From Verrucomicrobiaceae bacterium (GTDB taxonomy: Bacteria; Verrucomicrobiota; Verrucomicrobiia; Verrucomicrobiales; Akkermansiaceae): a stretch of DNA of 42,058 nt. Positions 1-42,058 of the stretch are shown in pieces. Where the stretch lies: positions 1-42,058 of the forward strand of contig JAIYDP010000008.1 in the NCBI GenBank assembly GCA_027487435.1. Direction: 5' to 3'. The translations under genes were made by a program, and so were the position numbers. Below the pieces are notes generated by a model that saw only the letters and a program-made list of their open reading frames with translations, was not told where the DNA came from and searched no databases. Each line of letters begins with the position of its first letter. The first letter of the stretch is position 1.

Positions 1-2239
1 AGGAGGAGGGGGGGGGGGGGCCTTACGATGAGGCTGGGTCGCCGAACGTGGGGCCGATGACTGTTCGAATGCAATGGGAGTCAGAAGTCTGTAGCGCGAC
101 GGTTGAGGTGACGGATGAGGAGATTGAGTCAACATCAATCATTTTGATCTTCCACTCGTTGTTTCCACAAAGCGCAATGGGGCGCGACACTTCAAATCGC
201 GGTAATGGCGCCATCACTTCTGAGGGAACGACGCAGAGGGACACCGGCTGGGCCGTTTGCTCGACCATGACCGCCCACTGCTCGAAGTCAGGGGCGAGGG
301 GGGTTGGACAAAACGACCTTGACTACAACGCCCGTTTCGACAAACGAATTGACAACGTCAAACTCTACGAGCATCCTGTCGGCGCCGAGACTGAACAAGC
401 GCATGGGCTCATCGACGGCGCGGAAGAACTGCACGCCGACGACGGCCTTTCGATGGCAGCGGTACCTCCCGATGTAGCGCCAATCGACGTCTTTTTTGAA
501 TTCGTTGACATGGCGCTCCCTTCGAAACAGTCCAACGCAGCCATTCCCATCGGCGGTTGCAAAATGACCATCGTCTGGGGCGCACGCGATGAGGGTGATG
601 GGGGCCGACGCAACGCCGAACGTTTGGACGTCCTGAGCGCGTCAGGACACAATTCGCGCCGCGGGGGACCTCAAGCGTCTCAGCGTTGAGCATTTTGATG
701 GTGCCATTGTCAAACCCGACGATAAGGAAGCTGCCCGACGCGTTGAAAGACAAAGACGTCGGGACACCTTTTTGAAACGAGCGCGACGTCCCGAAAAGCT
801 TGGCTCCGTAGTCGATCAGCGACACGATTCCTGAACAGATGAGCCAGTTGCAGAGGGGGGGGGGGAGGACCTGAGGAGTAGATGACCGCAACGAAGGGAG
901 ACGCGGGATGGGCGGCGATCTTTTGAATGGCCGCTGCACAGCCCGTGACAATGAGGTCCCCACGGCGTTCCTGCGGGTGAGAGAAATCAAGCGCGCGCAA
1001 GACCTCTTTGACGCCGCGCTGAAAAATGCCCGCGTTCACAAAGAGGACGCTTGCGGAGGTTGAAGCGACAATAAAGTTGGGGATGACCGGCTCCTCGTCG
1101 GAGTCTATTTTCGTCAGCGGCGACAAGTTAGGGTTCGACGCAGTTTCTCCGCGGGGTTGACGTTGAAGAAGCTTATGGACGCAATTGGCCCCGCGCCGAG
1201 GTCTTCGTACCACGCCAGCAGGCGGCCCTAACGAGTCAGTCCGCGCCGGTGGAAGAGAATGAACTTTAAAATCGTAAAAGCGAACCGCGCCGTTAGAATC
1301 GCCCGTGACGATAAACGACGAATAGACATGAAGGACATCAATGCGACTGTTGTGGAGCCTACGACATCAACGCGCAGCAACGCCAACGCCAAACCGAATG
1401 ATTTTGACGGCGCGCTTGTCGGTTGGCGAGGTGTTGGCGTCAGCCAGCGCCGGAGTGTCCCAAAAAATCATATCGCCATCTTTCGTCGCGCTGATGGCCA
1501 TCGTGCCCGTGAGGTAGGAGGAGACGGTGAAGTCTCCGACGCTCTGCTGCAGCTCCCTAAAAGGGGTCAGTGTGCGAAGGGTTCGCATGGCACTTTGTCG
1601 ACACGGGGGGGGAGTAGAATTTAAGCCTCTGCCCATCCATGCGCCAGAAAATGACCCTCTGGGGGCCGTTTGAAACAAACTGCGTGGGGTCTTCGAGGCT
1701 GAACCGGACGAACGCCTGGACGTCACTGGAGGGTACTTTTTCGGTCGCAACAGGGACATCACTGTCAGAGCCCCATTCCCAGACTTGGACCTGCTGCGGC
1801 TGCGCTGTGGGGTCATGGGGGAAGTGAGGGGGGGGCTCACCTGCCGTCAGCAAGACAACGAACTTGCCATCTGAAGAAATGTCGACACTGCAAATGCCTC
1901 CCTTCTCTGCCGAGAAGATGTTCCTCATCGGCGCCCCAGTAGTGGAGTCCCAAATCACGAGCATGCTGTCGGAAGCTCTATCGGCGGTGACAATCCAGCG
2001 CCTGTCAGCGGATACCGCGCAACAGGAAATGCAAGAGGTCTGAGAGGTTAAAGTAGAATGGTAAAATATACATGGCCCAGAAGGAAACTTTGATGATGAG
2101 CGTCAAGGTCGTACAAGACACCAACGTGTCCAGAAATGTAGAAAATGGACTTCTTCTCGTCGACAGACAAGTCCCATACTGCACTTGTGATGTCCTTTGA
2201 GAATCCAAACGTCCATCGTAAATTCTTCGACGTAAGCAT
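1..2239 (-). CDS. CFAP251: CFAP251/WDR66-like radial-spoke WD40 protein (3' end beyond window)
   Basis: In characterised flagellates CFAP251 is a WD-repeat protein of the calmodulin- and spoke-associated complex at the base of radial spoke 3. Reading starts at ATG 2239. Ten short introns were removed: 2040-2071, 1805-1840, 1557-1593, 1359-1394, 1228-1264, 1105-1139, 971-1003 (least sure), 831-870, 633-669 and 281-317. An eleventh has its donor at 26 and runs off the left edge. The joined frame is open for 617 codons. Family landmarks appear in order: FYISGHVGVLYD, DRRWIVTADRASDSMLVIWD, VSNGPQRVIFWRMD, ATKDGDMIFWDTP, FIVTGDSNGAVRFYDFK, LLAWYEDLGAGPI, DDGHFATADGNGCVGLFRRE, GNNEWKIKMID and VIGPTFGDP. 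It lacks the long acidic N-terminus of animal WDR66 and begins directly at the first WD blade. The C-terminus is missing. The family is clear; the exact start is less so. Confidence 0.9.
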
Positions 2240-2342
2240 TTACGCTGAAGGTGCAAACAAGGGCTGATCGTTGCATGCAAACTGTTTGTGCTCAAATTTA
2301 TTCGAAAATAGTCATTATCCAACGGAAGGGAGCAGAGTTGAG

Positions 2343-3217
2343 TTAAGCATCTTCTGCATCGCCGTCGTCTTCGTCGCCTTCATCGTCATCCTCCTCCTCG
2401 CCTCCTTCGTCATTTTCTTCGTCGTCGTCGTCCCCCTGATTCGTTATCCGATTCCCGAATGGGAGAAATACAAGGAAGAGATCTTTCGAATTCGCGAAGA
2501 TGTCATCCTTTATTGCTTCAATCAAGTCCAAGCCCACATCAGTCGATGTTAGCGTCCCGAACAAACCGCTCGGCTGCTGCTTCCCCTTTTCAATAAGATA
2601 TCCCAACTACCGAGTCATTACGCTTTTCTTCCACTGAATCGGATCCACTTTGATCGCGACTGAATTGTCGTCGGAAATGTCAATTGTGCTTGTTATCTTC
2701 GAGTTCGAGAAATGCGGGTTCGCTCTGAACGACTTGACAAGTCAAAAAGAGACGGCCGAAGACGTCGGAGGACTTACATATGTAATAACGATCCCATTTT
2801 TCGACGTAGGCATGAGATCACATTCGATGTTGGTCAGCGACCCAAAATATTCGTCATCGTCGTCTGCCCAACACACTGCTGTTTCACCACATTTCTTGAG
2901 CTACATTCGGTCAGAGAACGTAGCTCTACACACCCACGCAAGTAATCCAAAAGTTGGGAATCTTGGAGAGAGCTGCGTTGCGCTTGACGATGAACGGGCG
3001 CTTCTTTTTGAAATACTCGTTCGAAATGTCATTAACCTGGCGAGTCAGGGATTGTAAACGAAGAAAAACTTTTGACGACAACTCTTCCTCCAGTTCAGAC
3101 AGTTTCTCTTCCATGGGTTCGATCGAATCAAGAATGGCCTCGAGATCAACTTCCTTGTCTGTTACAAAGTTGCACGGCCATGTCAACCAAAACAGCCTCA
3201 CCGGTCTCTCCTTTCAT
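2343..3217 (-). CDS. SET: SET/TAF-I (NAP-family) histone chaperone
   Basis: NAP-family proteins bind histones H2A/H2B or H3/H4 and assist nucleosome assembly. Five introns (3154-3193, 2901-2937, 2733-2777, 2586-2621, 2436-2471; 36-45 nt) leave six exons totalling 681 nt, or 226 aa. The order is: an N-terminal coiled coil rich in EE/LEE (residues about 9-45), the NAP/SET helix-to-earmuff junction KKKRPFIVKRNAALSKIPNF followed by WIT, a beta region with NPHFSNSKITSTIDISDD and IQWKKS, the segment LDLIEAIKDDIFANSKDLF, and an unbroken acidic tail of about 30 residues. The lack of an extended C-terminal region, and PNFW, favour SET/TAF-I/Vps75 over NAP1. ATG 3217 gives a 24-nt first exon; this start is the least certain part. 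The gene diverges from the TTLL gene 109 bp away. Confidence 0.85.
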
Positions 3218-3326
3218 ACGCTTCGCAGGTGGGCCAGTTTCCCTGCTCGCTAAGATTCAGTATTGCCAACACGAACTTCATCTGCGTGTGTCGAAAAGTA
3301 GGAATTAGTCTTTAATTTAATGTTAT
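3218..3326. promoter_or_regulatory. 109-bp divergent intergenic region between SET and TTLL
   Basis: This is all the DNA between two divergent start codons, so it should hold both 5' UTRs and the promoter(s). The half nearest the TTLL start is AT-rich (about 3306-3326, with alternating TTTAATTTAATG). I cannot identify a TATA box or a named factor site. The role is inferred from position only. Confidence 0.45.
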
Positions 3327-8412: not shown

Positions 8413-9165
8413 CGCCGTCGGCTCGGTCCTGTAACTTTCTGTACATAGCGCAGAGAACGGAAATGCTTCATTTGTATGTTAGCCTCTCAGACAAGTGAGG
8501 AAGGAACAGAAAATCCCATTGCTTGCTGTTTCGAGCTTGTCGAAGTAAACGAGACCATGTTCATTGTGATTTTTTGTTTTTTTAAACAAAATGATGTAAC
8601 TGCCTTGCGACCGAAGCGGCATCTGAAAGACATCGAGTGAGTCTCTGAGAAACGTTTCCGGCGAATTGCAAATCTTCAGGCGGGGATGCCGTCAAGGCTG
8701 CGCCATGACGAAACGTTGCAAGACAGCACACGGCTCCACGCGCGACCCTGTCAACAATTTTGACATCACGGCCTTAGACCATATGTCCGTGTCGCGCAGT
8801 ATGGTCAAAAGAACCGCAAGGGTGGGAGATGCTCAATAGGCCATCACCTGTCGTCTGTTCGCAATATGTAAGTGTCAAGTCTTGGACGTCATGACAGGAG
8901 TCAAAAAGTTCACTCGCGGCCCCACAAACGGAGCGGATCGAATCAGCTCTACACAGCGGCCGCGTCAATCGACCAAAGCCTTCACAAACAGCGCAATGAT
9001 GGACGTCAACTTCTCAGCCCGGGTTTCCAAACGTCGTCGCCAACGACCCCTCGGACTCTCTCGCCCCACGGGCCGCAGCGGCTCCTGGGCCCCTCACAAC
9101 GGACGCTCCACCGCCCTGCGCCCTCTCAATTGTGCGGAGCCTCCTCAGCGCATTTGTAACAGCGG
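8413..9165. other. Intergenic between two convergent genes
   Basis: This 753-bp stretch lies between the stops of the orphan gene (+) and the TTLL6-like gene (-). Short ORFs on both strands show no family motif. An AT-rich patch at about 8566-8592 with a T-run and AAACAAAA could belong to 3' end formation. I see no RNA gene or repeat. Confidence 0.4.
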
Positions 9166-10904
9166 CTATTCGCACATCTGCAGATGGTGCAGGGCTGTCG
9201 TTGTAAAAATAAAAAGCAAACGGACAAACGGAGGCTGCGACAATCGCTGCGACAAGAACCCGGACGGCAGAACGGCGCGACCAACAGCCGCCGAGGCTGC
9301 GGCGGCGTAGGACTGGCGCTCGGCTGTCGCATAGACGTCTTTGTCCTCCTTCGGCGGGTAAATCAAAGTAAGCGACGTCTGCGGGGGGGGTAAACAAGGG
9401 GGAGGCGGGCCAGAGAGCACCAAATTGGCTTCCTCATGCGCGACGCGCATCGCCACGAGCTCTTCGCGGGCGAAATCCTTCTTCGTCAAAACAACCTCAA
9501 ACGAAGGGACATAGTCGCCCCCTGCGCGAAGCGCCTTCAACCTGTTCCGCTCTGGGGCGGTCGTTTCAACCATTTTGAACACCTGCGTCAGCAAGGAGAG
9601 CTTCACCTCTTGATCAAGGGGCGAGTTCGTGTCGAAGGAGGGCATTTCGTTGACCTGGCGCCCTCAGCAACCCCCCCTCACCCCGCGCGCCTCAATCAAA
9701 TTCGGCTTGCCCTTGTGGTCGAGCATCACGTCAAGGCCCATCACATCAAAACAGCTGAAGCCAACGCTGTCCTTTGCGTCCGGCAGACAAGCCTCATCTC
9801 GTGAGCAAATCCCCACCACCCCTTACGCGGTACGTCTGGCGCAACGTCGGCAACGCGGAAATAATCGTCAGCCGCACAAGCCGCTTAATATCACCCCAAA
9901 TTGCCTCTTCATCAAAGCCGTTCTCACGCAGCCACAGCCGCACGAAGGAGAGCGGCCGCTTGCTCGCGGTGTCGCTTCTGCCGTCGTTTTCGACAAAGTC
10001 TTCGTTCTTTTTGTTCACGGAATAGTTCGTCAGGTGCATGAATTGCCTGCTCTGAAGGCTTGAGACAAGCGAAGCTGACGGTGCGCAGCACCAGCGTCGC
10101 GTCGGTTAGCTTTTGAAACGGCTCTGTCGCAAAGCGCGCAAGGCCTTCTTCGTTGAGGTACACGCGCAGGGGGTCGAGGGACGTGACGACGACGTAGATG
10201 CGGAGATCAAACTTATAGCCGTCGATAAGCATCGGCTGGGCACCATCAGAACGAAGGGCCGCGTGAGGGGGACTTTGTTTATGTACCGCTGCGCAACGTA
10301 CTTTGCTCCGCTCTCAATCCCATCGCCCGTGCGGGTGAGGAAAATTCCACGGCCACAGCACCCCCCGTCGGGCTTGACGATGAAGGTGCGAACCTTGAGA
10401 ATTGAACACACAATCGACAAAAGACAAGACCTTGCGCTTGCCTTGAACGACTCGATGAAGCTGGCCTTCAAACGCGGCGCGACTGAGGGGTGAGGAGGAC
10501 ACGGGAGAGGCGTGCTCCTGAGGCAAGATGTACGACTCTGGGAAGAAGTTGTAAGCCTCTGGCATTGCCGCTTTCATGCGGTTCAAATTCTTGGCAAGCT
10601 TGCATTTGTGCGCCAATTCCGACATTTGAGGGAAGTGGTTGATTTTCTGCGCCATTATGGTTGCAATGCACGGTCACCTGCATCCTCTTCATCCTGAATA
10701 TGCGCTCTTCTGAAACCGAATAATCCATCCAGAAAACATCCCATTTCTCGGAATCATCCGTTTCCTTCCACCCGACCTCTTCAGCTGCTTCCCTCACTGC
10801 GGATTAGCCCTCATCACGCCTACAATCATAGGCTGCTTACCAACGTCGTACAGGGCCATCGAAAGGTTTACACGACATCGCCGTTTCTTTTTTCTCCTGT
10901 CCAT
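9166..10904 (-). CDS. TTLL6/13-like tubulin polyglutamylase
   Basis: Members of this clade elongate glutamate chains on tubulin of cilia and basal bodies. Eight exons (introns 10797-10840, 10647-10677, 10394-10430, 10236-10273, 10052-10091, 9793-9826 and 9655-9690) sum to 1479 nt, or 492 aa. The joined protein runs through the family almost motif by motif: [134 protein letters not shown] and EVNEMPSF. The ATP-grasp lysines and metal ligands are present; the usual PWLLEVN tryptophan is Asn (PNLIEVN). The start is the first ATG before the RRKKK block. The last intron has a GC donor. The C-terminal 40 residues are unconfirmed. TTLL6/13 is the best match; TTLL7 or TTLL4 cannot be excluded without a tree. 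Confidence 0.92.
9655..9690 (-). other. 36-nt GC-AG intron in the TTLL6-like gene
   Basis: Read on the minus strand, the intron begins GCGCGC and ends CTGAGGGCGCCAG. Removing exactly 36 nt joins LIE to VNEMPSF and restores the conserved metal-binding (L/I)EVN of TTL ligases in frame. The nearest GT alternative (27 nt) would leave three extra residues inside that motif. It fits the local length class and branch-like CTGAG placement. Confidence 0.75.
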
Positions 10905-11408: not shown

Positions 11409-11430
11409 GCGCAACTGACAGCCAACGACG

Positions 11431-13706
11431 TTATGTATCATTAAATGTACCCTTACCACAATGTGGAATGATGTGCATGCGGCATCCTCCGCACGCGAAT
11501 TCAAGCTCTGCCGACAATCTCAGCCCCGTGTCCCAACATGAGGTCCAGCGGGCCGTGTCAAACACATTTGATGTGGTGGCGTCCCTTTCGCTTCAACCCA
11601 ATCCATCAACGTCCTCACCTCATCTTCCGAAGCCGCGTGGCAATCGATGCTAACTTACGCGGCCGGCTCGCCGCGGCAACAACCAACTCGAGGAAGTCGC
11701 CGTGGTCGCGGGCGACCATTTCCGCCAAGCCGAGCCCCAGCGCCAGCGCCGGCGACACTCTCGCCGAGAAGTCCTCGCCGGGGACGCAAAGAACGGGGAC
11801 CTTCGTGGTCAACTCAAGAGGAACGATCACGCACGCCGCTCCAAAGAGTATCGATGGCCGTTGTGTGTGCGGTGAAAAGGACGGTGTCGACAAACCCGTC
11901 GGCAAGGCCTTTAATCAAAAACTCGCGCTCTCGGGGGAAGAAGTCGTGGAAGTGGAATCTGCGAGGTGACGCCAACATTTGCAAGCGCTGACCTGTCGGA
12001 GGAAATGTTGCGAAGCGCAAGGGCCCGACGGCGCATGTTCTGGTTGTGAGGGGTGGCATGAGGGGGGTAACTTCGGGGGGGTATGGGTCAAAAATTATCA
12101 TCCACAAATGCAGCTTGGGAACTCGCGCCATGGCGTCGACCCAAATGTCAAACGACGTCGGCTCCATCTTGTACATGGACTGCGGGGTAAAACTAAATGT
12201 CATTTGCGGACGTTCCATGCGCCGAAAACGATTGCGTCGTCGGGGATTCCAAACTCTGCACGAGTTGGCCACGCCATCGGCGAGCCGTCTGTGCGATTGA
12301 CCAACGGCTCGCCTCGCTGCAGGAGGACTTCTCTTCGGCTTTGTCTGTAATCTGTGACGAGGTATGTGTCTGCGAGATAGATCAGCTTCTGCGACAAGTA
12401 AGAACGATAAACCGCATGCGCGACCTCGGAATAATAAGAGATGAGGTCAGGAGGCGACGTTATCTTATCAGACGCAAGGTAGTCGACAAACGGGGCACCC
12501 ATTGTGCCAGGGTATCCATGGAAGTGCATCACGAGAGGCGCAGGCCGCATTGCCAGCAGCTCCATGCCCGGGAACAGCGTCCAACCGGACATGTCGATGA
12601 GGACGTGGATCTGCCGCTGCTGAACCGCCAGCGCAACTTCCGCGTCGTTCATGGCCGCCGCTTCGATAAATTCGAAAACCTCTGCCATGACTTGAAGCCT
12701 CTCAACGCGGCCATCATTGCTTTTCCTAGCGAATGCAAACACCTAAGCGCAATCATTTAAACGCAACGACGGGGACCTGAAAATTGGAGCGTCGATGAAG
12801 CCCGAAGATAGAACGAGTGAACCTTGCCGTCGTCGTGTTTCCCTGAAACCCTGAAGACGATACGTAGCCGATTCGAAGGGTGCCGCTCCACTCTGATCTA
12901 CATTTAGAGCGATGGCACGGAGAAACTGCCTGGGCGGGGGTTCAAGACAAAGCCTTTGATGTGGTGAAGAGTTATTTGTGCGTGGAGGCGCGCGTTCGAT
13001 TGCAGTTGCAGAGGGGACAGCTGGTCGTTTGGGGGAGGGGTCAGGAGTGGGACGGCTGGACACTCACGCCGTACACAGCGGACTGCCACGGCTGGACCAG
13101 AACTCTGTTGTCGCGCATAAACGAATCGAACAATGAGCGGAACGAGATCATGTGGTCGTGCCAGTGGCGCCAATCGGCGGTCTTTTGCATAACGGCGAGG
13201 CTATTCATGATGGGGGTTTGATGTGTTGAGTCCAGCTGGATTGCGATCGCAAGGGCGTCTTCGGCAAGCTTCAGACGTCAGCCCCCCCGATCGCAAACAA
13301 GAAGTACTGTGAAGTTCTTGAGGCTAATATAGGCATTACCGAGGTTGTTGTAAGCACGAAAGAACTGCAGGGGTCATTTTCGCCCTAAAATAGCGACATC
13401 AGGCCGGATAGTCGTCGCTTGAATTTGACAAAAAGCCTCTGCGTGAAATCGCTTCATCGAATGCATGACATTACCAAGCCCAAACCACGCATCTGCATCC
13501 ATGGGGTCCCGCTTTAAAGACTCGCGGTAGAACCTTGTCGTCTTGACAGTCAGTGTGGCGAAAATTGAGTGGGAAACAATTCGTTCAGCGCCTTCTAGTC
13601 CACTGATGGCGTTGGCTGGTCTGTTACTTGAATTGATATCAAACCAACCGATGGAGATGAGGACCGAGGCATTGACGGTCTTGTCAACGTAGACGCAAGG
13701 GTTCAT
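11431..13706 (-). CDS. UDP-GlcNAc: protein O-GlcNAc transferase (GT41)
   Basis: OGT transfers GlcNAc from UDP-GlcNAc to Ser/Thr of nuclear and cytosolic proteins. Thirteen exons (introns 13542-13577, 13365-13397, 13269-13307, 13021-13067, 12893-12926, 12743-12776, 12180-12211, 12040-12071, 11959-11992, 11801-11834, 11585-11618 and 11508-11537; the first and last are least sure) sum to 1857 nt, or 618 aa. Residues about 40-150 hold two to three TPRs (DADAWFGLGNVMHSMKRF; AYNNLGNAYISLKNF). GT41 motifs follow: LRIGYVSS, FAFARKSNDGRVERLQVMAE, MRPAPLVMHFHGYPGTMGAP, the catalytic-lobe Lys in NSMYKMEPTSFDIW (about 428), TAHTTAIDTLWSG and VPVLCVPGEDFSARV, then FDTARWT near the end. GYVSS is followed by SGFQGNTTT instead of the usual DFxxH. 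The TPR array is far shorter than in animals or plants, unless upstream exons were missed. Confidence 0.92.
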
Positions 13707-13994
13707 GGCAGAAACAGCTCCGTCAAAATGATTCTAGGGAATAAACTTCGAACCTAAATGCTCTCATACCCTTTGCAACTCTTCCAAGACGTACTCACAC
13801 CATTTCACAGACATCACATCATGCGAGCAGGAGGCCAGACAAAAGAAAACAAAGCCGGCCCACAGACGCATTCGTTAAATTTGAGGTACAACTTTTGAGT
13901 TGGAAATGGCGGGAAGTAGAATTGTCCTACCCATTGTGGAGGATAAGACGGTTCTGAAAGCATCTGCAGAGCAAAGCTTCTTGCGATCTTCGGC
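13707..13994. promoter_or_regulatory. 288-bp divergent region between OGT and GCP2
   Basis: This is the space between the OGT (-) and GCP2 (+) start codons and presumably carries both promoters. A short ORF on the minus strand (13814-14002) has no family signal. The role is inferred from position; no specific element was seen. Confidence 0.4.
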
Positions 13995-16356
13995 ATGTTC
14001 ACGCCATTTGAAGTTTCGTTGATGTCTGCAGCGGATACAACATTTCAGCGTCCATTTCTGAGCATTGGGCTGCCGAGCCGCTCCTCAATCATGATGGTTT
14101 CGACCACTGGAAAAGTTCACCATGCAGGAGAAGTCAAAAGCAGCCACTCCAGCAGGTGCGCTGTCAGTGGAACATCAGGAAATTGCAGTGATTGACGATC
14201 TCCTCAATTTCATGATAGTAAGCCATGAGGAGGCATTGCTTTTACAAGCCTAGGGCATTGATGGCATATACATCAAATTTAGCTACACGAATGAGTCTCT
14301 GAAGGAGCTTACGTTTGACTTGGATCCAACCCTAGGTGGTGTCTGTGAACGCAGCATTGACGCGGCTCAGATTCCTCCACATCCTTTCTTGCGAAACGTA
14401 TTTGCCCCCTTGGGCTCTACTATGCGCACATCGCCCGCTTCATCGAGAGTAGATCTATCATGGATTGTGGTCTCGTCAGCCACGCGCTGTCGGCCGCCAT
14501 GAGAACCCTCCTCAAGGTGGGATCCTTGGCGTTGCTGCTGATGAATTAGGAGTATCTTGTACTCGTCGCGCAACTTGAAAGCCTCCACCTCTTGTCTGAG
14601 CTGACTCTTCAAAAGATGTCGTTCTTTGTTCAGCCGACACTTGAAACGCTTCGCCACATTGACGATCTCGTACGCGGCATCGACGCCGCCTCCCGAGACC
14701 GGGGAGGAGCCCTCCTCAATATCATTTACGCCCGCCTCCTGGACGTCGGCGGCGCTTCCGATGTGTTGCAGAAGTTGTTCCTCTTCCTGCTCGAGGCTGC
14801 AGCGCAGCCTTTCCTCGCACAGCTTGAGGCTTGGCTCTACAGCGGCACTGTTGATGACCCATTCCTTGAGTTCATGATTGAAACGACGAATAGCTCAAAC
14901 TTTTGGGCATCAAGGTTCCGATTGATTGCCGAGCGGGCGCCAAATTTTTTGGGCGATGTGCATTTATTTCAAAAGATTCTTGTCTGCGGTAAGAACTTAA
15001 GCGTTCTGCGCGAGTGTGGGGAGGCCTCTCGGCTTCCAGAGCGAACAAAAGTTCCGTTCAGCACGTCGGCCCACATGTGGCCACCCACCCTTTGAGCTGA
15101 CGATGGCAGATTCTCCGCTGTCGTCGACAAGGCTCTGAGAGTATCTTCCAAAATGCTAATCGACCATTTTCGGGACAAGCGGTCCCTGGTGTCCCGATTT
15201 CAGTTCGGTTCATAGCGATCCCTCTCAAACCTCAGGTCTCTTAAGCATTTCTTTCTTCTCGATCAATGCGACTGGATGACGCTTTTCTTGGACCTGGCGG
15301 CCGATGAGCTCTGCCTGAAGCGAAGCGACATCGACCGTTCTCGGCTTGAAGCTGCCCTTGAGGTTGCTGTTCGCGCGTCGGTTGCGTCAGCGGACCCTCA
15401 TCACGGTGATATCAAGCCCGTGTTGATGGATGCGTCGGCTCTTCACGAAATCATGCACCTTCTCAACGTCGACAAAGAAGATGCTGAGAGCGCCGATGCT
15501 CCAGTCATCCAACTAAACGGTTGCCTCCCTGTCGTCCTTCCCTCACACGCAGGATTTGAGGCTTTTTCTATTGCTTACGAAGCGCAATGGCCCCTCAACA
15601 TTGTCTTCAACAGAGAAGCCATGGGAAAATATCGTTTCCTTTTTCGCCACCTGTTTGCCCTCAAGCGAACGGAACTTGCTCTCTCAGCCGCGTGGAAAAT
15701 CCTCTCAGCGTCTAGGGCGTCGGAGCTGTCTGGGCCTCTTGTGACTGTCCATGTCCTCCGCAGTGCGCAGCTCCATTTCATTCATTCGCTGCTGCATTAC
15801 CTTGCCTTCGACGTTGTGGAGGACTGCTTTCAAACGTTCATGGCCAAGCTTGAGGGCGCCCAGTCCCTGGACGACATCCTCGGCCTCCACTCAGACTTCC
15901 TTGACAATTGTATCCGGAGGTTTTTCCTTCCGAATCGAGAGCTGACACAAGTGAGAGATTTGCGTCCCTTTGACACATCAAGGCATTCGCAAACATCCTC
16001 TCAACTTGTGACCGCTTCGCAGACTACGCGCAGAGGACAGCGCGAACGTTTGAGACGTCGTTGGCGGAACAAAGCAGTACCACCAAGACCTCAACTGCAC
16101 TAATCACTTCGCGGTCAAAGGTTTTCAAGTCAAATTCACGCCCTCCTCACTCAAGCAGCTGCGAGCAGAGATTGCGTCCACTTTGGCAGACGACGATCAT
16201 TTCAAACGAACGATCCACAAGCTCAAGAGCGAGTTCGAGGAGCGCTTGCAGGGTTTCATGCGGTTAGTGCAGGGGCACACGTCTCAAGATCTTCAGTTGT
16301 CGACCCTTTTGATTGGCCTCAACTTCAACCATTACTATACATCTATAAAACTGTAA
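13995..16356 (+). CDS. TUBGCP2: Gamma-tubulin complex component 2 (GCP2)
   Basis: GCP2 pairs with GCP3 and gamma-tubulin in the small complex that nucleates microtubules. Nine exons (introns 14097-14127, 14218-14253, 14336-14370, 14517-14549, 15077-15109, 15203-15235, 15951-15982 and 16077-16120; 31-44 nt) sum to 2085 nt, or 694 aa. N-terminal grip1 motifs: EHQEIAVIDDLLNFMI, GIDGIYIKF, FDLDPTL, YYAHIARFIESRSIMDCGLV, SHALSAAMRTLLKEYLVLVA, QLESLHLLSELTLQKMSFFV, PFLAQLEAWLYSGTVDDPF and LEFMIE. Grip2, gamma-tubulin binding: RFQSLKHFFLLDQCDW, FLDLAADEL, FEAFSIAYEAQWPLNIVFNR, YRFLFRHLFALKRTE and DDILGLHSDFLDNCIRR. AMRTLL and LDQCDW point to GCP2 rather than GCP3. The protein is shorter than human GCP2, mostly from a trimmed N-terminus. 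The 15077 donor has an alternative at 15065. The CDS overlaps the convergent neighbour by 14 bp. Confidence 0.93.
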
Positions 16357-21788: not shown

Positions 21789-22328
<540 letters not shown>

Positions 22329-22582: not shown

Positions 22583-23747
22583 ATGAAGGCCGTTCTCATT
22601 CTGTCGATTGTTATTCTCGCGACGGTTTCGATTCTCATCTCTTGTGACACGAAAGGGCTGTCGCCATAATTCTTTCAAGCTTCCCCCAGTTTCCCAATGG
22701 CCGTCCCGCGTTCTTTCCCCCTTGCCCTCTGAGTCGATGCTGCTCTCCGAGCTTCCCTCGGAATGGGATTGGAGGTACCATTCTTTCGAGTATTCTTACT
22801 CCAGAAATGTAAATGGCACCAACTTCTGTACCAAGAACCTTAACCAACATATTCCTCAGTGTCTGCAATTTTGGGACCGGCTGACGTCGGCAGATTGTGG
22901 AAGTTGCTGGGCTCACGGATCGATGTCTAGTCTTGCCGACCGCATCAAAATCTCTCGGAAGGCTGCTTGGCCGGATATCATACCCGCTATTCAAGGTTGG
23001 TATTACCTGTTGTGTCCCACGTTGTAGACATTCTCAATTGTGGTACTTCGGCTGGAACCTGCGGAGGAGGCTCTCCGATCATGGCATTCAAATTTGTCCA
23101 TGAAAATGGAATCCCCGACGACACGTACGACGTTCTAATTGCGTTTTCATCTTCCAGATGCCAAGCTTACGTCGCCGACGACTTGAAATGCACTGACGAG
23201 CATCGCTGCCAAAACTGCCAGCGTTGAGTATCGTCCGCAAGGTGCTTACATTGTAGCTGGAGTCGGCTGCTTTGCTCAAAAGAACTACACGTTGTATCAC
23301 ATCGACGAATACAGTTCCGTCGTCGGCGAGCAAAAAATGATGGCCGAAATTTACGCTCGCGGCGTTCCCAATTTGTCACCGCTATTGACTTTTCAGCCTA
23401 TTGCCTGCGGAATCAACGCCGACCCCATCGAGTCTTACACTGGGGGAATCATTAAGAGTGCATCTGCGCTTGTATTCCTCTAAGCTCTCAGCCATTGAAC
23501 CGCCGATGATTAATCACATCATCTCAGTCGTGGGATGGGGCGAAGAAGGCGGCGTGAAGTATTGGATAGGCCGAAATTCATGGGGTAGCATACATCCCGT
23601 CCCAATGAATAGTCAGGCATGTACTGGGGAGAGCAGGGATGGTTCAGGATCATCCGTGGCTACAATGCGCTTGGTATTGAGGAGGCATGCTCATGGTTCC
23701 ATCCTTTTTGCTCGTCACTGACACAAGTAGGGCAACCCCTGTCGTGA
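22583..23747 (+). CDS. CTSZ: Cathepsin X/Z-type cysteine carboxypeptidase (C1A)
   Basis: Cathepsin X is a papain-fold lysosomal carboxypeptidase. Ten exons (introns 22625-22655, 22775-22804, 22861-22893, 22996-23027, 23125-23157, 23223-23256, 23364-23396, 23458-23491 and 23585-23616; all 30-34 nt) sum to 873 nt, or 290 aa. A signal peptide ([14 protein letters not shown]) precedes a short propeptide of about 36 residues with one Cys, as in cathepsin X. Mature landmarks: [29 protein letters not shown] (catalytic Cys; HIPQY is the cathepsin X mini-loop), [84 protein letters not shown] (catalytic His) and YWIGRNSWG (Asn). Two introns (22775, 22861) are stop-free multiples of three that would otherwise be mistaken for insertions; removing them restores the family sequence exactly. 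Confidence 0.95.
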
Positions 23748-23924
23748 CTGCAGCGTAGTTTCAAACTTAAGTACACTATGTTGTCACGATACATCTTGAC
23801 TAGTTTATTTTCGCCCTAGCATGCTCGACGTTATGTTTGATATCTAAGAGCTGATGAGAGAAACCTCAACGGACAAACGGCATCTGCTTTCATTGCAATC
23901 ACTGATCTCGCCTAAGACTTAAGT

Positions 23925-25074
23925 TCAGGCCAATGCAAGCAGACCCCAGAAACTATCTTTGACGCGAAACTGTCTTGCTGAGATCCATCTGGAGAGTTTG
24001 CAAAGAAGCAAAGGCTCACAAACACGCGCTGAATGTCTTGTTTGGGGCCATTTCAGTTGCAAAAAGGTCTCTGCTAGCGGAAAACATAGTGTTCTCAGCA
24101 TTGGCTGAGATGTTCTCTCCAAGATGGACCTGTGGTTCCGAAAAGAGATCTGAAGAAGAGATTGACTTCTTGTTCCAAAATCTCGCCTGAATATCGGCGT
24201 TGTTTGAGTTGGATGCATCCGGAGCGAGCACCTGCATCTGGGGTTCCCTCTTTGAAGCAGCAACCAATCTACTTGGTCGTGAGTTGCGGAGAGCTGGCAC
24301 GCACGTTTCTTGAGAATCAGTCGGGCTTTCGGTGAGAGAGAGTTTCGGAAACTGAGTCCTTCACGTCAGCACAACTATGCCATAGCGATACAATGGGTCG
24401 GCGGCGATAGTCTTCGCTTCACATGAGTCATTGGGGGCTGCCGCCGCTGCAGGGAACACAACTGCAGTACCGAGCTTCGTTGCGCCAAGCGAAGTTTTCT
24501 TTGAGGACACAGGACGCTTCAAAAGGGTAGAGGATTTCGCTTCTGACGCGGTCCGAACCATAGGGGAGGCGGACGACGGAAGATTTGGCTGCAGATGAGG
24601 ACGTGCAGACGTTTCAGCAGCAACGGGGACTGGCATCTCATGCACTGAGCTGCTTGTTAACTCAACTGAATGCTCGTCAGGATGCAGCGCAACTTCCTTC
24701 CTGAAATGTCAGCCGAAATCTGAAGCGCCACACTTAAGCTCCAAGGCAGCAAGGCTGTGGAGATGATTCTTGTACAACTCAGCAGCCCTTGATGTGTACT
24801 TAGCCTCTATTCTGCTAGCGCCAGCTCCAGTTATGCCATGCTGACTGAAGAAAGTTGCTGCATTGGCATTTCCACCAACAACCATGTTTGCAATCTGCTC
24901 CGGAGTCCATGTATCGAACTCAATGGACCGAACAAATGAAACATGAACACCGAGTTTTCGATGCTGCCCGGCGCAATCTAAACACAGGAGGATCCCAAAG
25001 GAGGTCGATGCCCATGCAGGGTTTTTTGTCCCACAATCGATGCAGACCTGAACAATCACCTTGAAAGCGGCCAT
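23925..25074 (-). CDS. ArfGAP2/3 (Glo3)-type Arf GTPase-activating protein
   Basis: ArfGAP2/3 stimulates GTP hydrolysis on Arf1 at COPI vesicles. Four exons (introns 24701-24733, 24359-24391 and 23989-24025; 33-37 nt) sum to 1047 nt, or 348 aa. The zinc finger is complete: CIDC (11-14), then CLDC 16 residues later, with the arginine finger in [18 protein letters not shown] and [16 protein letters not shown], then [17 protein letters not shown]. The middle is Ser/Ala/Pro-rich and disordered. Toward the C-terminus, [15 protein letters not shown] matches the ArfGAP2/3 C-terminal box (xxxKxISSxxxF). The protein starts unusually close to the zinc finger (MAAFKVIVQ), so a missed upstream exon is possible. 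The start codon diverges from the golgin gene by about 130 bp. Confidence 0.9.
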
Positions 25075-25203
25075 TGTACTTTATTCTCTTGTTTCGATCG
25101 AACCTTCTTCAGCGCATTAGCGCTGGCTTCGAGGCACAGGTGCTTTGCAGAGGCCATTCGCAGTGAGAATAAAGATGTGTGGGTTGCTGCTGTTAGTTTT
25201 TAG

Positions 25204-31131: not shown

Positions 31132-31259
31132 TGGCTAGTTTGTATTCTCGCATGGGCGCAACGTCGCCAGTATTTAAGTGTAAATTAGCGTTGTCCTGAT
31201 ATGGTCCTCAAGCATTCGATTGCTTCCCGCACAACAGCTGCTCGCGTGAGTTCGTTCAT

Positions 31260-37080: not shown

Positions 37081-40000
37081 ATGACGGACAGTTTCCTCTC
37101 CTGTATTGGTGCAGGACTGACATCGGTCCCGACTATCACAAACAATCTCACTCGCGTCAATCTGCATGCAAACTGTGTGCGCTCCATCGGATCGTCGTTT
37201 GCAAATGCAACGAACTTGCAGGAATTGGACCTGAGTTCTAATCAGCTTCGCTCAACGATTGGGTTCTCGCCATTGATATCAGTCACTTGTCTGAATATTG
37301 CTTGCAACAAGGTGATGCACCCCTACGTTACGTTTATATCCCAGATCGTTTGTATTGAGGGTCTCGGTGCCCTGACACGCTTGCAAAAGCTTAACTTGTC
37401 TTACAATCGAATCAACAGTTTATCAGGACTCGAGGATCTCAGTTCGCCGTATCATTCTCTTCGGTCCGCAACTCTTCCAAACATCATCCTCATTGATTGA
37501 AGGGTCCTTGATGTTCGGGACAATCAGATCTCGAAGCGCGAAGACCTCCGCATTGTCTGTGGCCTCAAAGTAATCAACGCGTCATCTCCCCAACATTGTA
37601 GAAATTAGAAGATGTCTCATTCTCTGTCAAGGAGAAGACAAATCCCGTCGTCCACACCGACGTCGAAAATATTTCCAGCCGCCACTGATTCTCCCAGTTC
37701 TATAGAAAATTCATGTCATCTCATGCTCCTCCATCCCTTTCCATGATCGATGGAGTTTCTCTAGCGTTGTTTCGCACCCATCCTGAAGATGACTTTCCCC
37801 CACGACATGAAAATGAGCCCGTCCAAGTCCAGTCGCCGCCATCGAGGCCTCAGAGAGCGGCTCCTGAAGTTTTTTCTCCAGCTGAAGCTGCAAGGGTGCT
37901 GCGAAACGAAATTCGATTGGGAAGGTTCGTCAATGGCAGATGATCTCCTTATTTTAGGCTAGAAGAAAACATTGACCATCTCCGAAAGGCACGGGCGCGG
38001 TTCGGAGGCCGTGGCCGAGAGGAGCCCGAGGCTGTGGAGGTAGAAGCAGTGCCAAGGCATGGGCATAAGAAGGACGCTTGTTGTGCCACAGAGACTTGGA
38101 GAGCCACGGCCGCTTCGGCTGTGCAGACGGAGCAAAGGCTGACGACGTCATCTTCTCAGACCCAAAACGGTAAAAATTCCTTTGTTTCGAGGTTTTCCGA
38201 GTGTCTGATGGGAAAGATCGATTGGAGCAAAAAATTCAAGTCGATACGATGTCGCCTTTGATATCTGACCTGGAGTGTGCTCTGTTGCAGAAGGAAGCCG
38301 ACTTGAAGACGTTTGCTTCTTTCCTCCTTTCTCACTTCGCAGCTTTGCGTCTGCTGCTGAGCTCCGCGATGCCGATGCAGCAAAAAGATTGAACACGGAA
38401 ATGGAGGTTCGAGCTGCAGTCGAGAGGAAGCTTGTCGTTGACTTCACCCTCGTTGTTGACGTGGGCAGGCATCGTCAATTGAATCAAATGCCTCGATGCA
38501 AGTTGCAATCAGCGAGCTTTCCGTTCGCCTTGAGGAAGCTGTTCTGCGTGCCCGTGCAGCGGAAGTGCCGATTTCGAATCTCTTTTGACAAATGAAGGGC
38601 CGAGCAGCCTCATCAGGGTCAGAATTTGATGCCCAGCGAAGTCGTGAGCTTGAGGCTCGAGAGCAGCACCAAGTTGCATTGGCCGAAATTGATGTGACGT
38701 TGTTCGTAATGCTCCTCACGACTCAGCGCAATCGTGCCGAAATTCGGGATCTGAAACGTCGGATCCAGCTACAGCAAGAGGAAATTGATGAGAGCCAGCG
38801 CAAACTCACCATAATCAAGCATGGTTTCGCTTTAATGTCTGACTGAAGTAGAACTCGAGAGAACGAGCTGTCGTTGGAAGCGTCTGCTCTTCGGGACCGC
38901 GTGGTGCTGCGCGATTGCTTTGAAATTTTACGGTGCAGCAAGTGGCTGAGCGGGCTCGCCTTCAGACTGATTCTGAAATTGCCGTGTATTGTTTTGGAAG
39001 GGAGATACCAATTTGCAAAGGATACGGGATGAGGCGAAGGCGTCTTTGAGAGCATTTGACTCAGAGCGAGCCAAATGGAGAGACGGGAGCCATCAGCAGG
39101 AGTGTCAGCACGAAGCAGAGAGGCTGAAAGTACGACCCTTTGGGTACAAATGACGTGCTCAGTGGGCTGCAGATAGGGAGTTGCTCAGGGTTTGCGCCTC
39201 TTTGAGAGAGTTCTCATCTTTTTCAGAGCGCAACAGAAGATGCGTCGAAGAAGATAGCAGATCTTCGGGCTTTACTATCTCGCAGCGAATCCAAAGAGGC
39301 TTGTCATCGACAGGAAATGTTCATTTTCCAGAAGCGCGCTGCCTCTGTTGTCGAGGAGCTGACAGATGTCGTTCGAGAGCTCAAAGATAAACTCTCGTCG
39401 GAGTGCCGCGCACGAAAACGAGTAGGCAGGAGTCAGAGGTGTCTGAATTCGAAGGAATCTCAGCGAGTGGAACAATTATCAAAACAGTTGGCGGAGCGAG
39501 ACAAGGACGTCCAACTTGCGCTCGATTCGGAGCGACACGGAAGGGTTTGGAGGCTTTGATTGACTTGACAAAACGAGGCTGATGTTCTCCGAGAGGAGCT
39601 GCGACAAGCGCGCGAGCTGATTGAGGACTTGAGCGAGGACCTTCGTAGCGCTAGAGTTGCGGAAGAGAGCGTCACCTTTTGTGGTTGGAGCTCAAGTTGT
39701 AGGCCTTGAAGAAACTGGATTCGATGACCAAGGAGCACGAGCATCTGAAGTACCTCTTTGCCAACCTTTGGTGAATACTCAGAAATGAATTGGCTCGCCG
39801 CGAGGAAAATGAGCGCATATCTGACGTTGTGACGAGGGATTTGCGCGAATCTATCGAGGGGCAAAAGAAGAAGGTCCTTTCTCGGTTGCCATGCTGATAT
39901 CAGGAGCTTGCGGAAGTGTCTGCGCGGCTTACGGATGAAGGTCTCCATTTTGTTTTGTTGTTGATGAAGTAGAGAGGAGACGCCGAGAGTTACAGAAGAA

Positions 40001-40700
40001 GCTGGACGAATCTGCAGTTGACATGGTACCCATTCCTTGTGTTTACTCACTCGTGAGGACGAATTAGACCATTGCAAGAGAAGAATCGTTTTGAAGAACG
40101 TGGACGAAGGCTAACGCGTCAGAGTGGATATGAAGATACTATCGTTGAGATGGAGAGCATTATCAACGAATTGAGAGAGAGTCTCCGCAAGACCGACCGG
40201 TCCTGGCGAAGCTGCGAAGAAGAGCTACATGATCGGTCGGAACAGCTTGCAGAGACAGAAGAGTCTCTCTTGGCTACGAAAAGGAAGCTCGCTGAGGCCG
40301 AGGCTCGTATTATCAGCATTCAAAACGAGGCCAATCAAACTTGGCGAGCGTAAGCAAATTCTTTACCAAACCAAAGTGTCAGTGAAGTCGCTGCCATTGA
40401 AAAGAAGCTCAGCGTGGAATCTGCAGAGTGGCCTGATTTTTGTGAAAGATTCTTATGCAGAAAGGCTCAGTAGCGAGCGTGCAAGAGTGGCTCAATTGGA
40501 GAGGCAGATTGAGGACCGAGATCGGGCTGTTCTGAGAGTTTTTTCGCCTTGAGCTACTCTGACCACGAAAGCTGGAGGAGAAAGTAGGGCAATGCGAAGA
40601 TGAGATGCGCTCTATCCTCTATCAGTCCCAAAAAGAGCGTCAAGCCTTCGCAGCGAAGATAGACAAACTCGGCAAGGCAATGCTGCAAGGCCATGTTTGA
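37081..40700 (+). CDS. LRRCC1: LRRCC1/VFL1-like centriolar leucine-rich-repeat coiled-coil protein
   Basis: LRRCC1 (VFL1 in Chlamydomonas) marks one side of the centriole lumen and sets basal-body rotational polarity. The start is ATG 37081 (MTDSFLSCIGAGLTSVP). Three introns placed with confidence (37313-37345, 37462-37500, 37570-37601) join an N-terminal LRR block: LTRVNLHANCVRSIGSSFAN, NLQELDLSSNQLRS, VTCLNIACNKIVCIEGLGAL, LQKLNLSYNRINSLSGLEDL, VLDVRDNQISKREDL. LHANCV/LDLSSNQ/LNLSYN and the LRR order are close to LRRCC1. Then come a linker (SLSMIDGVSLALF) and a long heptad-rich region in several frames: RNRAEIRDLKRRIQLQQEEI, VEELTDVVRELKDKLSSECR, YEDTIVEMESIINELRESLR, LEEKVGQCEDEMRSILYQSQ, stop at 40700. 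Introns in the coiled-coil part (37620-40560) were not all placed. The homology claim rests on the LRR block plus architecture. Confidence 0.8.
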
Positions 40701-40722
40701 TTGATATTTACATCTCGGCTCT

Positions 40723-42009
40723 CTAGCAGAGAGAATCTTGAAGACATACCATAGAGTCCCGATAGGACCCTTGGCCGAGCTTCACAGAAAATGTTATGCA
40801 GTAGTGGCTCTGGATCAAGTTCCATTCCTCATACTCGTCCAGAAATTCAGCTTTGGACGCCCTTTCTTGTTATACTACCATTAGAGTTTGTACCTTAGCT
40901 GATCCTCCTTCGATAAACGAGAGTACATCTCCAGCATGTCTCTACATTTTCTAGACCATTACGGAGAACCGACAGCATTACGATGCGTCGTAACCGAGCC
41001 CGGTGTACCTCTTTTCTTGATCATCCTTCTCTGGGTACGCTCGCACAGAGAGCAGCGGGCATCCTCGAGCCTATTCTGTCATCCAGTAGAACACCAACGG
41101 GAACCTCCAAATTTGACATCATGATGACGCCAAAAGCATCATGTGGACGAATTTGCTCGTAGGTCAAGAACGCAACATGGTCAAACTTTGAGGAAGACAT
41201 TTCAATAAGCATATTGCCCTACCTAATCACAAGGGTGGGGGGTGAGTAAAGTCAGACCTGTTCAGGACTCAAATAGACCAACACACACTCCGACAAAAAA
41301 AGTGTGGGCTTCCTGATCATTAAAATTGAAAAGCGCCAGATACCCATAATCCACTTTCGATGCATCCAATGCTCTCACGATGGATGACTGCTCTCGAAGA
41401 TCACATGATAACAACGAATAGCAGGGGCTTGTGATCTCCTTTGTCACTTCATTCCTATTCCATCACTCAAAACAAGTAAATTTACAAGAAAGAGGAGAAA
41501 TGAACCTTCTCTGCGTGGATACTTTGATCTTTTGATGCAGAGAGTTCAATGTGATCTTTCAGATGCTGCATGATAATCGCAGTCTTCGCGACCACATTCT
41601 CTGCAAGATCCAATTCCACATATTTTTCAAAGAGGAATGAATGATGATGCTAAAATGTCAAGGCCACTTGACTTTGTTATTCCTGAAGAGCAAAAAAGGT
41701 ACTGTCAAAACCCGAACCCAATGACACAACTTGAGCGCATGGGCCAACCAGAGAGCAAAATTTCAACACAGAGTCTCGAATAGATTGCACTCGGGAGAAG
41801 TAGCCTTCAGTGTTAGAAAGCTGAGACCATGCGGACCCCGATTGATCAAAGGTGGCCGTCTGACAGTGGATCTGCAAAATATCATAAGATAGGGATCGTC
41901 GAAGTAGCCAAGCCTGCAAGCTGACCTAATGTGTCAGGCTGCCAACGAACAAGTTGTACAGCTTGCTCTCGAGGGCGTCATGAGCTGTGGAACGAACACT
42001 CTCACACAT
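40723..42009 (-). CDS. LCMT1: Leucine carboxyl methyltransferase 1 (PP2A C-terminal methylation)
   Basis: LCMT1 uses S-adenosylmethionine to methylate the C-terminal Leu of the PP2A catalytic subunit, controlling B-subunit recruitment. Ten exons (introns 41926-41959, 41805-41836, 41650-41682 or -41691, 41455-41485, 41313-41343, 41219-41257, 41071-41104, 40942-40981 and 40862-40893) sum to 981 nt, or 326 aa (323 with the alternative third donor); human LCMT1 is 334. Motifs in order: LSACRLGYFDDPYLM, RRPPLINRGYFSRV, the SAM-binding VVSLGSGFDSTFF, FEKYVELDL, YSLLSCDLREQ, GKPTLFLSECVLVYLSPEQ, DHVAFLTYEQIRPHDAFGVI, MMSNLEARGCPLLSV, SRDMLEMYSRLSKEDQ and AEFLDEYEEWNLIQSHYCI. ATG 42009 is taken as the start because the family begins just upstream of the GYFDDP motif; sequence beyond the window edge could add residues. 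Its stop is 22 bp from the LRRCC1 stop. Confidence 0.93.
41650..41691 (-). other. Intron with non-GT donor in LCMT1
   Basis: On the minus strand the acceptor is clear (CTTGACATTTTAG) and a TAA lies in frame, so an intron is needed here. No GT before the stop is in the right phase. A GC donor gives 42 nt (41650-41691); a GA donor gives 33 nt (41650-41682), the usual local length. Both keep the frame from SGFDSTFF to FEKYVELDL. Which donor is used cannot be told from sequence. Confidence 0.6.
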
Positions 42010-42058
42010 TGAGTCGATTGTACCAAGCAAATTTGGGACTTCGTTTTTAGAGGAGGCG

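What the first reader, a model, noticed from the sequence alone, without database searches (positions are those of the whole stretch)
1..42058. A whole-window class of 30-47-nt spliceosomal micro-introns with a short branch-to-acceptor ruler
I reconstructed more than 70 introns by requiring conserved family motifs to join in frame. Most are 30-40 nt. The donor is weakly constrained beyond GT (GTCCCC, GTGCGT, GTTTCG and GTACAA all occur). The 3' end is nearly always YTNAY, most often CTGAC, TTGAC, CTAAC or CTCAC, with the branch-like A about 7-10 nt before the intron end, and no separate polypyrimidine tract. For CFAP251, SET, TTLL6-like, OGT, GCP2, CPQ, cathepsin X, ArfGAP and LCMT1 the exon sums fit one uninterrupted frame. 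Recognition seems to rest on length and the 3' block rather than the donor, which would be notable for U1/U2AF function.
Basis: partly seen in the sequence, partly recalled or inferred. Interest (0 to 1): 0.8.

Follow-up and report, generated by a model that had tools for sequence, protein, structure and literature searches.

The report
Tiny introns measured by branch-point distance
The genes in this DNA, from an unidentified and likely single-celled eukaryote, are broken up by about 150 predicted introns of only 30-40 letters (ten backed by a transcript-like sequence) whose ends sit at set distances from a short internal signal; the cell therefore likely finds where an intron starts mostly by distance, perhaps with a splicing factor (U2AF65) whose predicted gene lacks one of its usual RNA-gripping domains.

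Summary
Confirmed and extended. The window is contig C369 of a mixed bacterial/eukaryotic assembly. A gene finder with flat length prior and no motif gave a GT-AG excess at 31-38 nt (403 vs 127-160 for 11 decoy pairs). Trained on 28 other loci, it introns in the held-out window, 150 at 30-47 nt. A transcript-like public protein (P0001; its 921-nt contig is shorter than the 1173-nt genomic CDS) fits the cathepsin X gene at 281/282 residues once ten GT-AG introns of 30-35 nt are removed.
Two spacings, not one length: mostly 22-29 nt before the branch A, then 8-10 nt to the end, uncorrelated. Donors carry about 0.2 bit beyond GT. Out-of-frame exonic GTs at the ruler distance are depleted about three-fold (12 seen, 36 expected); control dinucleotides are not. 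The assembly has a canonical U6 and a U2AF65 homologue with RRM1 and UHM but no RRM2, fitting the missing pyrimidine tract.
Inferred: donors picked mainly by distance; U2AF65 shed its second tract-binding domain. Not found, assembly incomplete: U1, U2, U2AF35, SF1, Prp8. Organism unplaced. A published pattern is broken: short-intron, weak-donor genomes were described as lacking a branch signature.

The parts
22583..23758 (+). Cathepsin X gene (peptidase C1A), 11 exons, TAG stop at 23756-23758
   Evidence: P0001 aligns 281/282 residues after removal of ten introns; PDB procathepsin X E 3e-75
22625..22655 (+). intron, 31 nt, donor GTTTCG, transcript-supported
22775..22804 (+). intron, 30 nt, donor GTACCA, stopless 3n, missed by the gene finder, transcript-supported
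22861..22893 (+). intron, 33 nt, donor GTCTGC, branch CTGAC, transcript-supported
22996..23027 (+). intron, 32 nt, donor GTTGGT, transcript-supported
23125..23157 (+). intron, 33 nt, donor GTACGA, transcript-supported
23223..23256 (+). intron, 34 nt, donor GTTGAG, transcript-supported
23364..23396 (+). intron, 33 nt, donor GTTCCC, branch TTGAC, transcript-supported
23458..23491 (+). intron, 34 nt, donor GTGCAT, transcript-supported
23585..23616 (+). intron, 32 nt, donor GTAGCA, transcript-supported
23696..23730 (+). intron, 35 nt, donor GTTCCA, branch CTGAC, transcript-supported
23..2276 (-).
2343..3281 (-). SET/NAP-family gene, 7 predicted introns of 33-45 nt
   Evidence: Pfam NAP 3.5e-16
9014..10859 (-). 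TTLL6-like tubulin polyglutamylase gene, 8 predicted introns
   Evidence: PDB TTLL6 E 1.1e-85
9655..9690 (-). candidate GC-AG intron, 36 nt, that would remove the 3-residue insertion left by the 27-nt GT-AG call 9655-9681
   Evidence: read by eye from the sequence against the alignment; suggestive only
11431..13871 (-). OGT-like (GT41) gene, 14 predicted introns of 30-41 nt
   Evidence: Pfam GT41 1.2e-76; PDB OGT
13906..16312 (+). GCP2 gene, 11 predicted introns of 31-38 nt
   Evidence: PDB GCP2 E 1.6e-110
24016..25157 (-). ArfGAP gene, 4 predicted introns of 32-33 nt
   Evidence: Pfam ArfGap 3.1e-34
37081..40700 (+). predicted gene (coiled coil by eye) with 27 predicted introns, 26 of them 32-39 nt and one 47
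   Evidence: held-out model
40723..42009 (-). LCMT1 gene, 9 predicted introns (eight of 31-39 nt, one dubious 81)
   Evidence: PDB LCMT1 E 3.8e-41

Best explanation
The window is dense with GT-AG introns, most of them predicted and 30-40 nt long, that are likely U2-type spliceosomal introns whose donor and acceptor each lie at a set distance from a YTNAY branch signal, so the spliceosome likely locates the donor mainly by distance. Working model: U2 snRNP and its helpers read the branch signal (inferred). The acceptor is the first AG at least 7 nt after the branch A (sequence pattern, 1621 of 1657 predicted introns). The donor is a GT about 22-29 nt before the A (1518 of 1657), with only weak help from an AG|GT..G context (sequence pattern). 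With 8-10 nt between A and intron end there is no room for a usual pyrimidine tract; the U2AF65 homologue in the same assembly keeps RRM1 and the UHM and lacks RRM2 (gene model), which would suit contacts to the few bases between branch and AG while its UHM still docks on SF1 or SF3B1 (inferred from known U2AF biology). U6 with an intact ACAGAGA box would check the donor late (inferred).
For: Decoy test: GT-AG 403 introns of 31-38 nt, 11 other pairs 127-160. Held-out window 146 at 30-42 nt versus 94 in 215.5 kb of bacterial-looking loci. Transcript-like P0001: ten GT-AG introns, 281/282 residues. Homology junctions 29 of 34 clean. Motif-free branch peak at 8-10 nt; YTNAY with A 7-11 nt from the end in 68.1% of 1663 introns versus 11.6% after shuffling. 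Two uncorrelated spacings: rho -0.04 over the 1615 of 1657 introns with 7-12 nt after the A. Frame-controlled GT depletion at the ruler, matched by offset from the donor: 12 seen in 1276 slots, 35.8 expected, p 5e-4; GA, TG, CT, AT ratios 0.97-1.20, GC 0.75 (p 0.16). U6 104.9 bits with ACAGAGA. U2AF65: 62 bits to human RRM1, 9 to RRM2; UHM match; only 175 nt, two introns included, lie between the RRM1 and UHM hits.
Against: No RNA-seq reads; P0001 is judged transcript-like from its contig length only. In the ten supported introns, distance and donor matrix rank the true GT first equally often. The donor matrix is not empty (AUC 0.76). The unmatched version of the GT-depletion test (0.9% vs 4.4%) overstates it; at offset 4 alone the fall is not significant (5 of 754 vs 10 of 577), and at offset 2 there is none. 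One call in eight or more may be false, which blurs the donor logo. The branch sequence is degenerate: the commonest hexamer, TCTGAC, is in 5.4% of introns, CTRAY in 30.4%. The U2AF65 match is below the family cut-off (136.5 of 310.3 bits). U1, U2, Prp8 PROCN, U1-70K, SF1-HH, U2AF35 and LUC7 were not found, so a second, full-length U2AF65 could lie in the missing part. 3n introns hold more in-frame stops (54.7% vs 44-46%), which may be detection bias.
Confidence: 0.7

Rival explanations
1. Ordinary U2-type introns merely shortened to a steric minimum: donors are still picked by U1 pairing, and spacing is uniform because nothing shorter can be spliced and nothing longer is tolerated in a compact genome.
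For: The lower edge is sharp (few introns under 31 nt); donors match U1 better than exonic GTs (2.32 vs 1.45 of 7); in the ten supported introns the donor matrix ranks the true GT first in 9 of 10.
Against: Distance separates true from competing GTs better than the donor matrix (AUC 0.958 vs 0.761); out-of-frame exonic GTs at the ruler distance are depleted about three-fold, which a U1-led choice does not predict; GTAAGT begins only 10 of 1657 introns.
Confidence: 0.29
2. Gene-finder artefact: short GT-AG segments cut out of coding sequence to stitch frames.
For: The finder such segments in 215.5 kb of bacterial-looking DNA; some odd-length calls sit at alignment gaps; in cathepsin X it added a false 94-nt call past the real stop.
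Against: Eightfold higher density in the window; excess only for GT-AG among 12 pairs; ten introns fixed by an independent protein at 281/282 residues; clean junctions in four further genes.
Confidence: 0.02
3. The segments are removed from DNA, like ciliate internal eliminated sequences, and P0001 comes from a rearranged somatic genome.
For: P0001's contig type is not stated.
Against: Ends are GT and AG with a branch-like signal 8-10 nt inside, not TA-bounded (the TA rule is recalled); excess only for GT-AG.
Confidence: 0.02

Closest known systems
Stentor coeruleus 15-16-nt introns (PMC9505925, passages read)
   Same: ultra-short GT-AG introns with the branch A at a nearly fixed place (10th base of 15) and no strong branch consensus
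   Different: half the length; U2AF2 and U2AF1 are listed as found there; here 34-nt mode, mostly 22-29 nt before the A and 8-10 after, and a U2AF65 without RRM2
Short-intron lineages of Irimia and Roy 2008: dicyemids, Paramecium, Bigelowiella nucleomorph (PMC2483917, passages read)
   Same: very short introns, very weak 5' splice sites; by that paper's hexamer measure the branch sequence here is weak too
   Different: those are reported to show no branch-point signature; here YTNAY at a fixed place is a strong signal
Intron-poor lineages with fused or constrained branch point and 3' splice site: Giardia, Spironucleus, Trichomonas, some yeasts (PMC2483917, PMC6679479, passages read)
   Same: set, short branch-to-AG distance; moving the branch signal abolishes splicing in Trichomonas
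   Different: few introns, strict branch and donor sequences; here about 7 introns per predicted gene, degenerate donor and branch
Human short introns spliced with SPF45/RBM17 instead of U2AF (PMC8363638, passages read)
   Same: short introns with truncated pyrimidine tract that U2AF65 binds poorly
   Different: there another UHM protein replaces U2AF65; here U2AF65 itself appears cut down
Yeast Mud2 (review PMC8624252, passages read)
   Same: U2AF65 relative that has lost recognisable RNA-binding RRMs and kept the UHM
   Different: in Mud2 only the UHM is recognisable; here RRM1 is kept and only RRM2 is gone, in an intron-rich genome
Diplonemid introns (PMC12621601, passages read)
   Same: flagellates with short introns, median 41-42 nt in two species
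   Different: YTRAY found in 2.4-15.8% of introns there (5-50 nt before the end), 51% here (whole intron; 23% after shuffling)

Membership tests
U2-type (major) spliceosomal introns | GT-AG ends | tested here: met
   excess at 31-38 nt only for GT-AG among 12 pairs; ten supported introns fit GT-AG (which allowed only GT-AG; five of the ten could shift 1-2 nt with the same product)
U2-type (major) spliceosomal introns | removed from RNA | tested here: met
   P0001, 281/282 residues, contig 921 nt shorter than the 1173-nt genomic CDS; transcript nature inferred; one gene of the window
U2-type (major) spliceosomal introns | YTNAY-type branch signal upstream of the acceptor | tested here: met
   branching itself not tested
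U2-type (major) spliceosomal introns | U6 snRNA in the genome | tested here: met
   C420:26255-26359, 104.9 bits, ACAGAGA intact
U2-type (major) spliceosomal introns | U1 and U2 snRNA in the genome | tested here: inconclusive
   no Rfam match; assembly probably incomplete
U2-type introns with polypyrimidine tract | pyrimidine tract between branch and AG | tested here: not met
   8-10 nt from A to end, Y 49-64% at +2 to +6
U12-type (minor) introns | strict donor (AT/GT-ATCCTT, recalled) or AT-AC ends | tested here: not met
   donor nearly random after GT; no AT-AC excess (146 vs 127-160)
Ciliate internal eliminated sequences | TA-bounded DNA segments (recalled) | tested here: not met
   ends are GT and AG
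U2AF65 (U2AF2) | RRM1 | tested here: met
   residues 64-157, human RRM1 62.3 bits
U2AF65 (U2AF2) | RRM2 | tested here: not met
   no match; 175 nt including two predicted introns between the RRM1 and UHM hits
U2AF65 (U2AF2) | C-terminal UHM | tested here: met
   residues 187-284, U2AF65 UHM chain E 1.6e-8
U2AF65 (U2AF2) | whole-protein score over the NCBIfam cut-off | tested here: not met
   TIGR01642 136.5 bits, cut-off 310.3; I therefore call it a homologue
U2AF65 (U2AF2) | N-terminal charged region and U2AF35-binding tryptophan motif | tested here: inconclusive
   RD-rich start and RKKTNWDVGP read by eye; motif recalled, not searched
U2AF65 (U2AF2) | U2AF35 partner | tested here: inconclusive

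The most novel reading that the evidence does not exclude
An intron-rich eukaryote that chooses 5' splice sites by measuring about 25 nt back from the branch point rather than by reading them, with U1 pairing reduced to an accessory role and U2AF65 stripped of RRM2 because the pyrimidine tract is gone: a branch-centred two-caliper splicing code.
Probability: 0.27. Interest if true: 0.85.

Novelty: new variant of a known kind. Interest (0 to 1): 0.63.

Why it matters
A 50-species comparison holds that strong 3' constraint goes with few introns, and that short-intron genomes show weak donors and no branch signature (PMC2483917, passages). Here a genome with about 7 introns per predicted gene joins ultra-short length, near-random donors and a fixed branch-to-AG spacing. 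The same assembly links this to a protein change, U2AF65 without RRM2, which makes a testable pair: lose the pyrimidine tract, lose the domain that needs it. It also gives a simple rule that gene finders for uncultured protists can use.

Tried and rejected
Artefact of frame stitching: rejected by decoy dinucleotides, held-out test, bacterial-looking control loci and P0001. One total-length ruler: rejected, the two spacings do not correlate. U12-type, AT-AC or a frequent GC-AG class: no excess, though one GC-AG case at 9655-9690 looks plausible. Translation-dependent selection against 3n introns: lengths mod 3 (0, 1, 2) are 544, 537, 576 and stops are richer in 3n introns, but the finder can miss stopless 3n introns (it missed 22775-22804), so left open. 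The ten supported introns did not separate distance from donor sequence. The second and third protein searches gave no transcript-like match: LCMT1 best 47% identity, SET/NAP best 28%. A relative of the 1022-aa window ORF was not found in genome contigs (the window's own genome may be left out there). LCMT1 tree: query on a long branch, no placement. U1, U2, Prp8, SF1, U1-70K, LUC7 and U2AF35 searches were empty and are read as uninformative.

Selection told: of 61 loci loaded (L032-L091 and the window), 55 passed a filter of under 5% N; 29 entered the eukaryotic set by length of 10 kb or more and 1.5 or more short introns per kb, 15 the bacterial-looking set by 5 kb or more and under 0.75 per kb (so both densities are partly by choice), 11 neither. 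Only L038 was seen to be all N; the other five dropped loci I know only to have failed the filter. L098-L101 were fetched later and are in neither set. Introns outside 30-42 nt were dropped before (1657 of 1845 kept). Competing sites in frame with the true site were dropped. In one search the near class used 22-28 nt although its printed title says 23-28.

Full report
WHAT THE WINDOW IS. The window is the whole 42,058-bp contig C369 of an assembly of 9.39 Mb in 506 contigs that is filed among prokaryotes. It is mixed: 32 kinesin matches and a canonical U6 snRNA mark eukaryotic contigs, while other contigs are long-ORF, intron-poor and bacterial-looking. The window has no tRNA found by ARAGORN and no Rfam match at gathering score.

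TRANSCRIPT-LEVEL SUPPORT. The cathepsin X gene has a near-identical public protein, P0001, from a JGI contig of 921 nt. The genomic CDS spans 1173 nt without its stop, so the contig cannot contain the introns. Aligning P0001 to the window with GT-AG introns allowed gives 281 of 282 residues and ten introns of 30-35 nt; nine had been predicted, the tenth (22775-22804) is a stopless 30-mer; the finder also made one false 94-nt call beyond the real stop. Five of the ten could be shifted by 1-2 nt with the same product, off GT-AG. That P0001 is cDNA is inferred, not stated by the source. The donors are GTTTCG, GTACCA, GTCTGC, GTTGGT, GTACGA, GTTGAG, GTTCCC, GTGCAT, GTAGCA, GTTCCA.

HOMOLOGY SUPPORT. 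Spliced models match TTLL6, LCMT1, OGT and GCP2 (1.6e-110). Of 34 predicted introns inside aligned spans, 29 lie more than 3 residues from any gap (gaps listed by hand from the printed alignments). One exception, a 27-nt call in the TTLL6-like gene, leaves three extra residues; a 36-nt segment at 9655-9690 beginning GC and ending AG would remove them (read by eye; a GT-AG alternative was sought there and not found).

ANATOMY. n = 1657 introns of 30-42 nt. After the branch A come 8 (816), 9 (453) or 10 (194) nt; before it 22-29 nt in 1518 of 1657, mode 24. The two do not correlate (rho -0.04, p 0.09). Because the A was chosen with a learned distance, I checked the motif-free set: YTNAY peaks at 8, 9, 10 nt after the A (101, 72, 38 in 403 introns), and shuffled introns have YTNAY with A 7-11 nt from the end in 11.6% against 68.1%. 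The branch sequence is loose: CTGAC, CTCAC, TTGAC, CTGAT lead; TCTGAC is the commonest hexamer at 5.4%. Donor information: 0.19 bit over +3 to +6 and 0.32 bit over exon -3 to -1 (sums); GTAAGT begins 10 of 1657. For scale, Irimia and Roy name 0.5 bit (dicyemids) as the weakest 5' boundary score known to them (PMC2483917, passage); their window may differ from mine and false calls dilute mine. There is no clear pyrimidine tract after the branch.

WHAT SELECTS THE ENDS. Against 1759 out-of-frame competing GTs, distance to the A gives AUC 0.958 and the donor matrix 0.761. The length model helped make the calls, so part of this is built in. A better-controlled test compares exonic, out-of-frame GTs at the same offset from the donor, near (22-28 nt before A) or far (30-60 nt): 12 seen near in 1276 slots, 35.8 expected from the far slots, p 5e-4; GA, TG, CT and AT give ratios of 0.97-1.20 and GC 0.75 (p 0.16). 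The pooled version (0.9% vs 4.4%) overstated this. By offset, the fall is clear at 5 (4 of 410 vs 38 of 892), not significant at 4 (5 of 754 vs 10 of 577) and absent at 2. On the intronic side it is weak (5.4% vs 7.1%). This fits selection against decoy donors at the ruler distance. The acceptor is the first AG at least 7 nt after the A in 1621 of 1657; AGs 4-6 nt after the A were skipped in 169 introns; AGs further downstream are not avoided. In yeasts, avoidance of such AGs goes with loss of U2AF1 (PMC8496845, passages), so I would expect U2AF35 here. In the ten transcript-supported introns, distance and donor matrix each rank the true GT first in 9 of 10: they do not decide.

MACHINERY. U6 is close to consensus with ACAGAGA. 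A U2AF65 model hit the assembly at C329. The gene there (L098, about 8436-9479, with a likely in-frame start further upstream) aligns to human U2AF65 RRM1 (62 bits; 9 to RRM2) and to its UHM; its whole-protein score is below the family cut-off (136.5 of 310.3 bits). Between the two hits lie 175 nt, two predicted introns included, too little for an RRM of some 75-80 residues (RRM size recalled). The first 30-nt intron predicted in this gene is probably false, since it reads through as DRYGGGPREEKRRR. The other hits are on RRM proteins of other kinds, as read by eye; no second U2AF65 was seen. Human U2AF65 holds nine contiguous nucleotides with RRM1 and RRM2 together (PMC4786784, passages), more than the space left here between branch and AG; human short introns with truncated tracts are handed from U2AF65 to SPF45 (PMC8363638, passages). 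Not found: U1 snRNA, U2 snRNA, Prp8 PROCN, U1-70K N-terminus, SF1-HH, LUC7, U2AF35. As Prp8 is near-universal in splicing eukaryotes (recalled), these blanks most likely mean an incomplete assembly.

COMPARISON AND NOVELTY. See Closest known systems. The combination of intron-rich, ultra-short, weak donor and fixed branch-to-AG spacing does not fit the two-class picture of PMC2483917, although by its hexamer measure the branch sequence here is weak, as in other intron-rich species. Stentor is the nearest precedent that I found for a fixed branch position in tiny introns (PMC9505925). Searches aimed at a U2AF65 with RRM1 and UHM but no RRM2 (listings, plus passages of PMC9247205, PMC8624252, PMC8363638 and PMC13326754) showed none; Mud2, with only the UHM recognisable, is the nearest (PMC8624252, passage). 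Only open-licence papers were searchable, so this is weak evidence of novelty. I rate it a new variant of a known kind.

Noticed in passing
window 31185-37035 (-): One predicted gene with 21 introns joins an ArfGAP zinc finger (1.7e-10) to a DOCK-type DHR-2 lobe A (4.6e-7): an Arf-GAP/Rho-family-GEF fusion or two merged genes.
   Followed up: partly
window 30271-31131 (+): KN/TALE-type homeobox domain (1.4e-12) (the query had a slip at its far N-terminal end).
   Followed up: no
window about 21500-22464 (-): Histone H3-like coding sequence (Pfam Histone 4.8e-48) with a second, truncated-looking copy beside it; the model merges it with the M28/CPQ peptidase gene.
   Followed up: no
assembly G000; e.g. 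L099 (C447, 137 kb): A prokaryote-listed assembly that mixes bacterial-looking contigs (DsbD-, glucose-6-phosphate isomerase- and Lgt-like proteins read by eye) with eukaryotic ones of similar GC: co-binning or a real association.
   Followed up: partly
window 9655-9690 (-): Possible 36-nt GC-AG intron; if real, the ruler tolerates a non-GT donor.
   Followed up: partly
1663 introns in 29 loci: 3n introns carry in-frame stops more often (299 of 547) than 3n+1 (239 of 539) or 3n+2 (268 of 577): NMD-type selection or detection bias.
   Followed up: partly
L098 8296-8450: The U2AF65 homologue seems to begin with an RD-dipeptide run where others have RS repeats (by eye).
   Followed up: no
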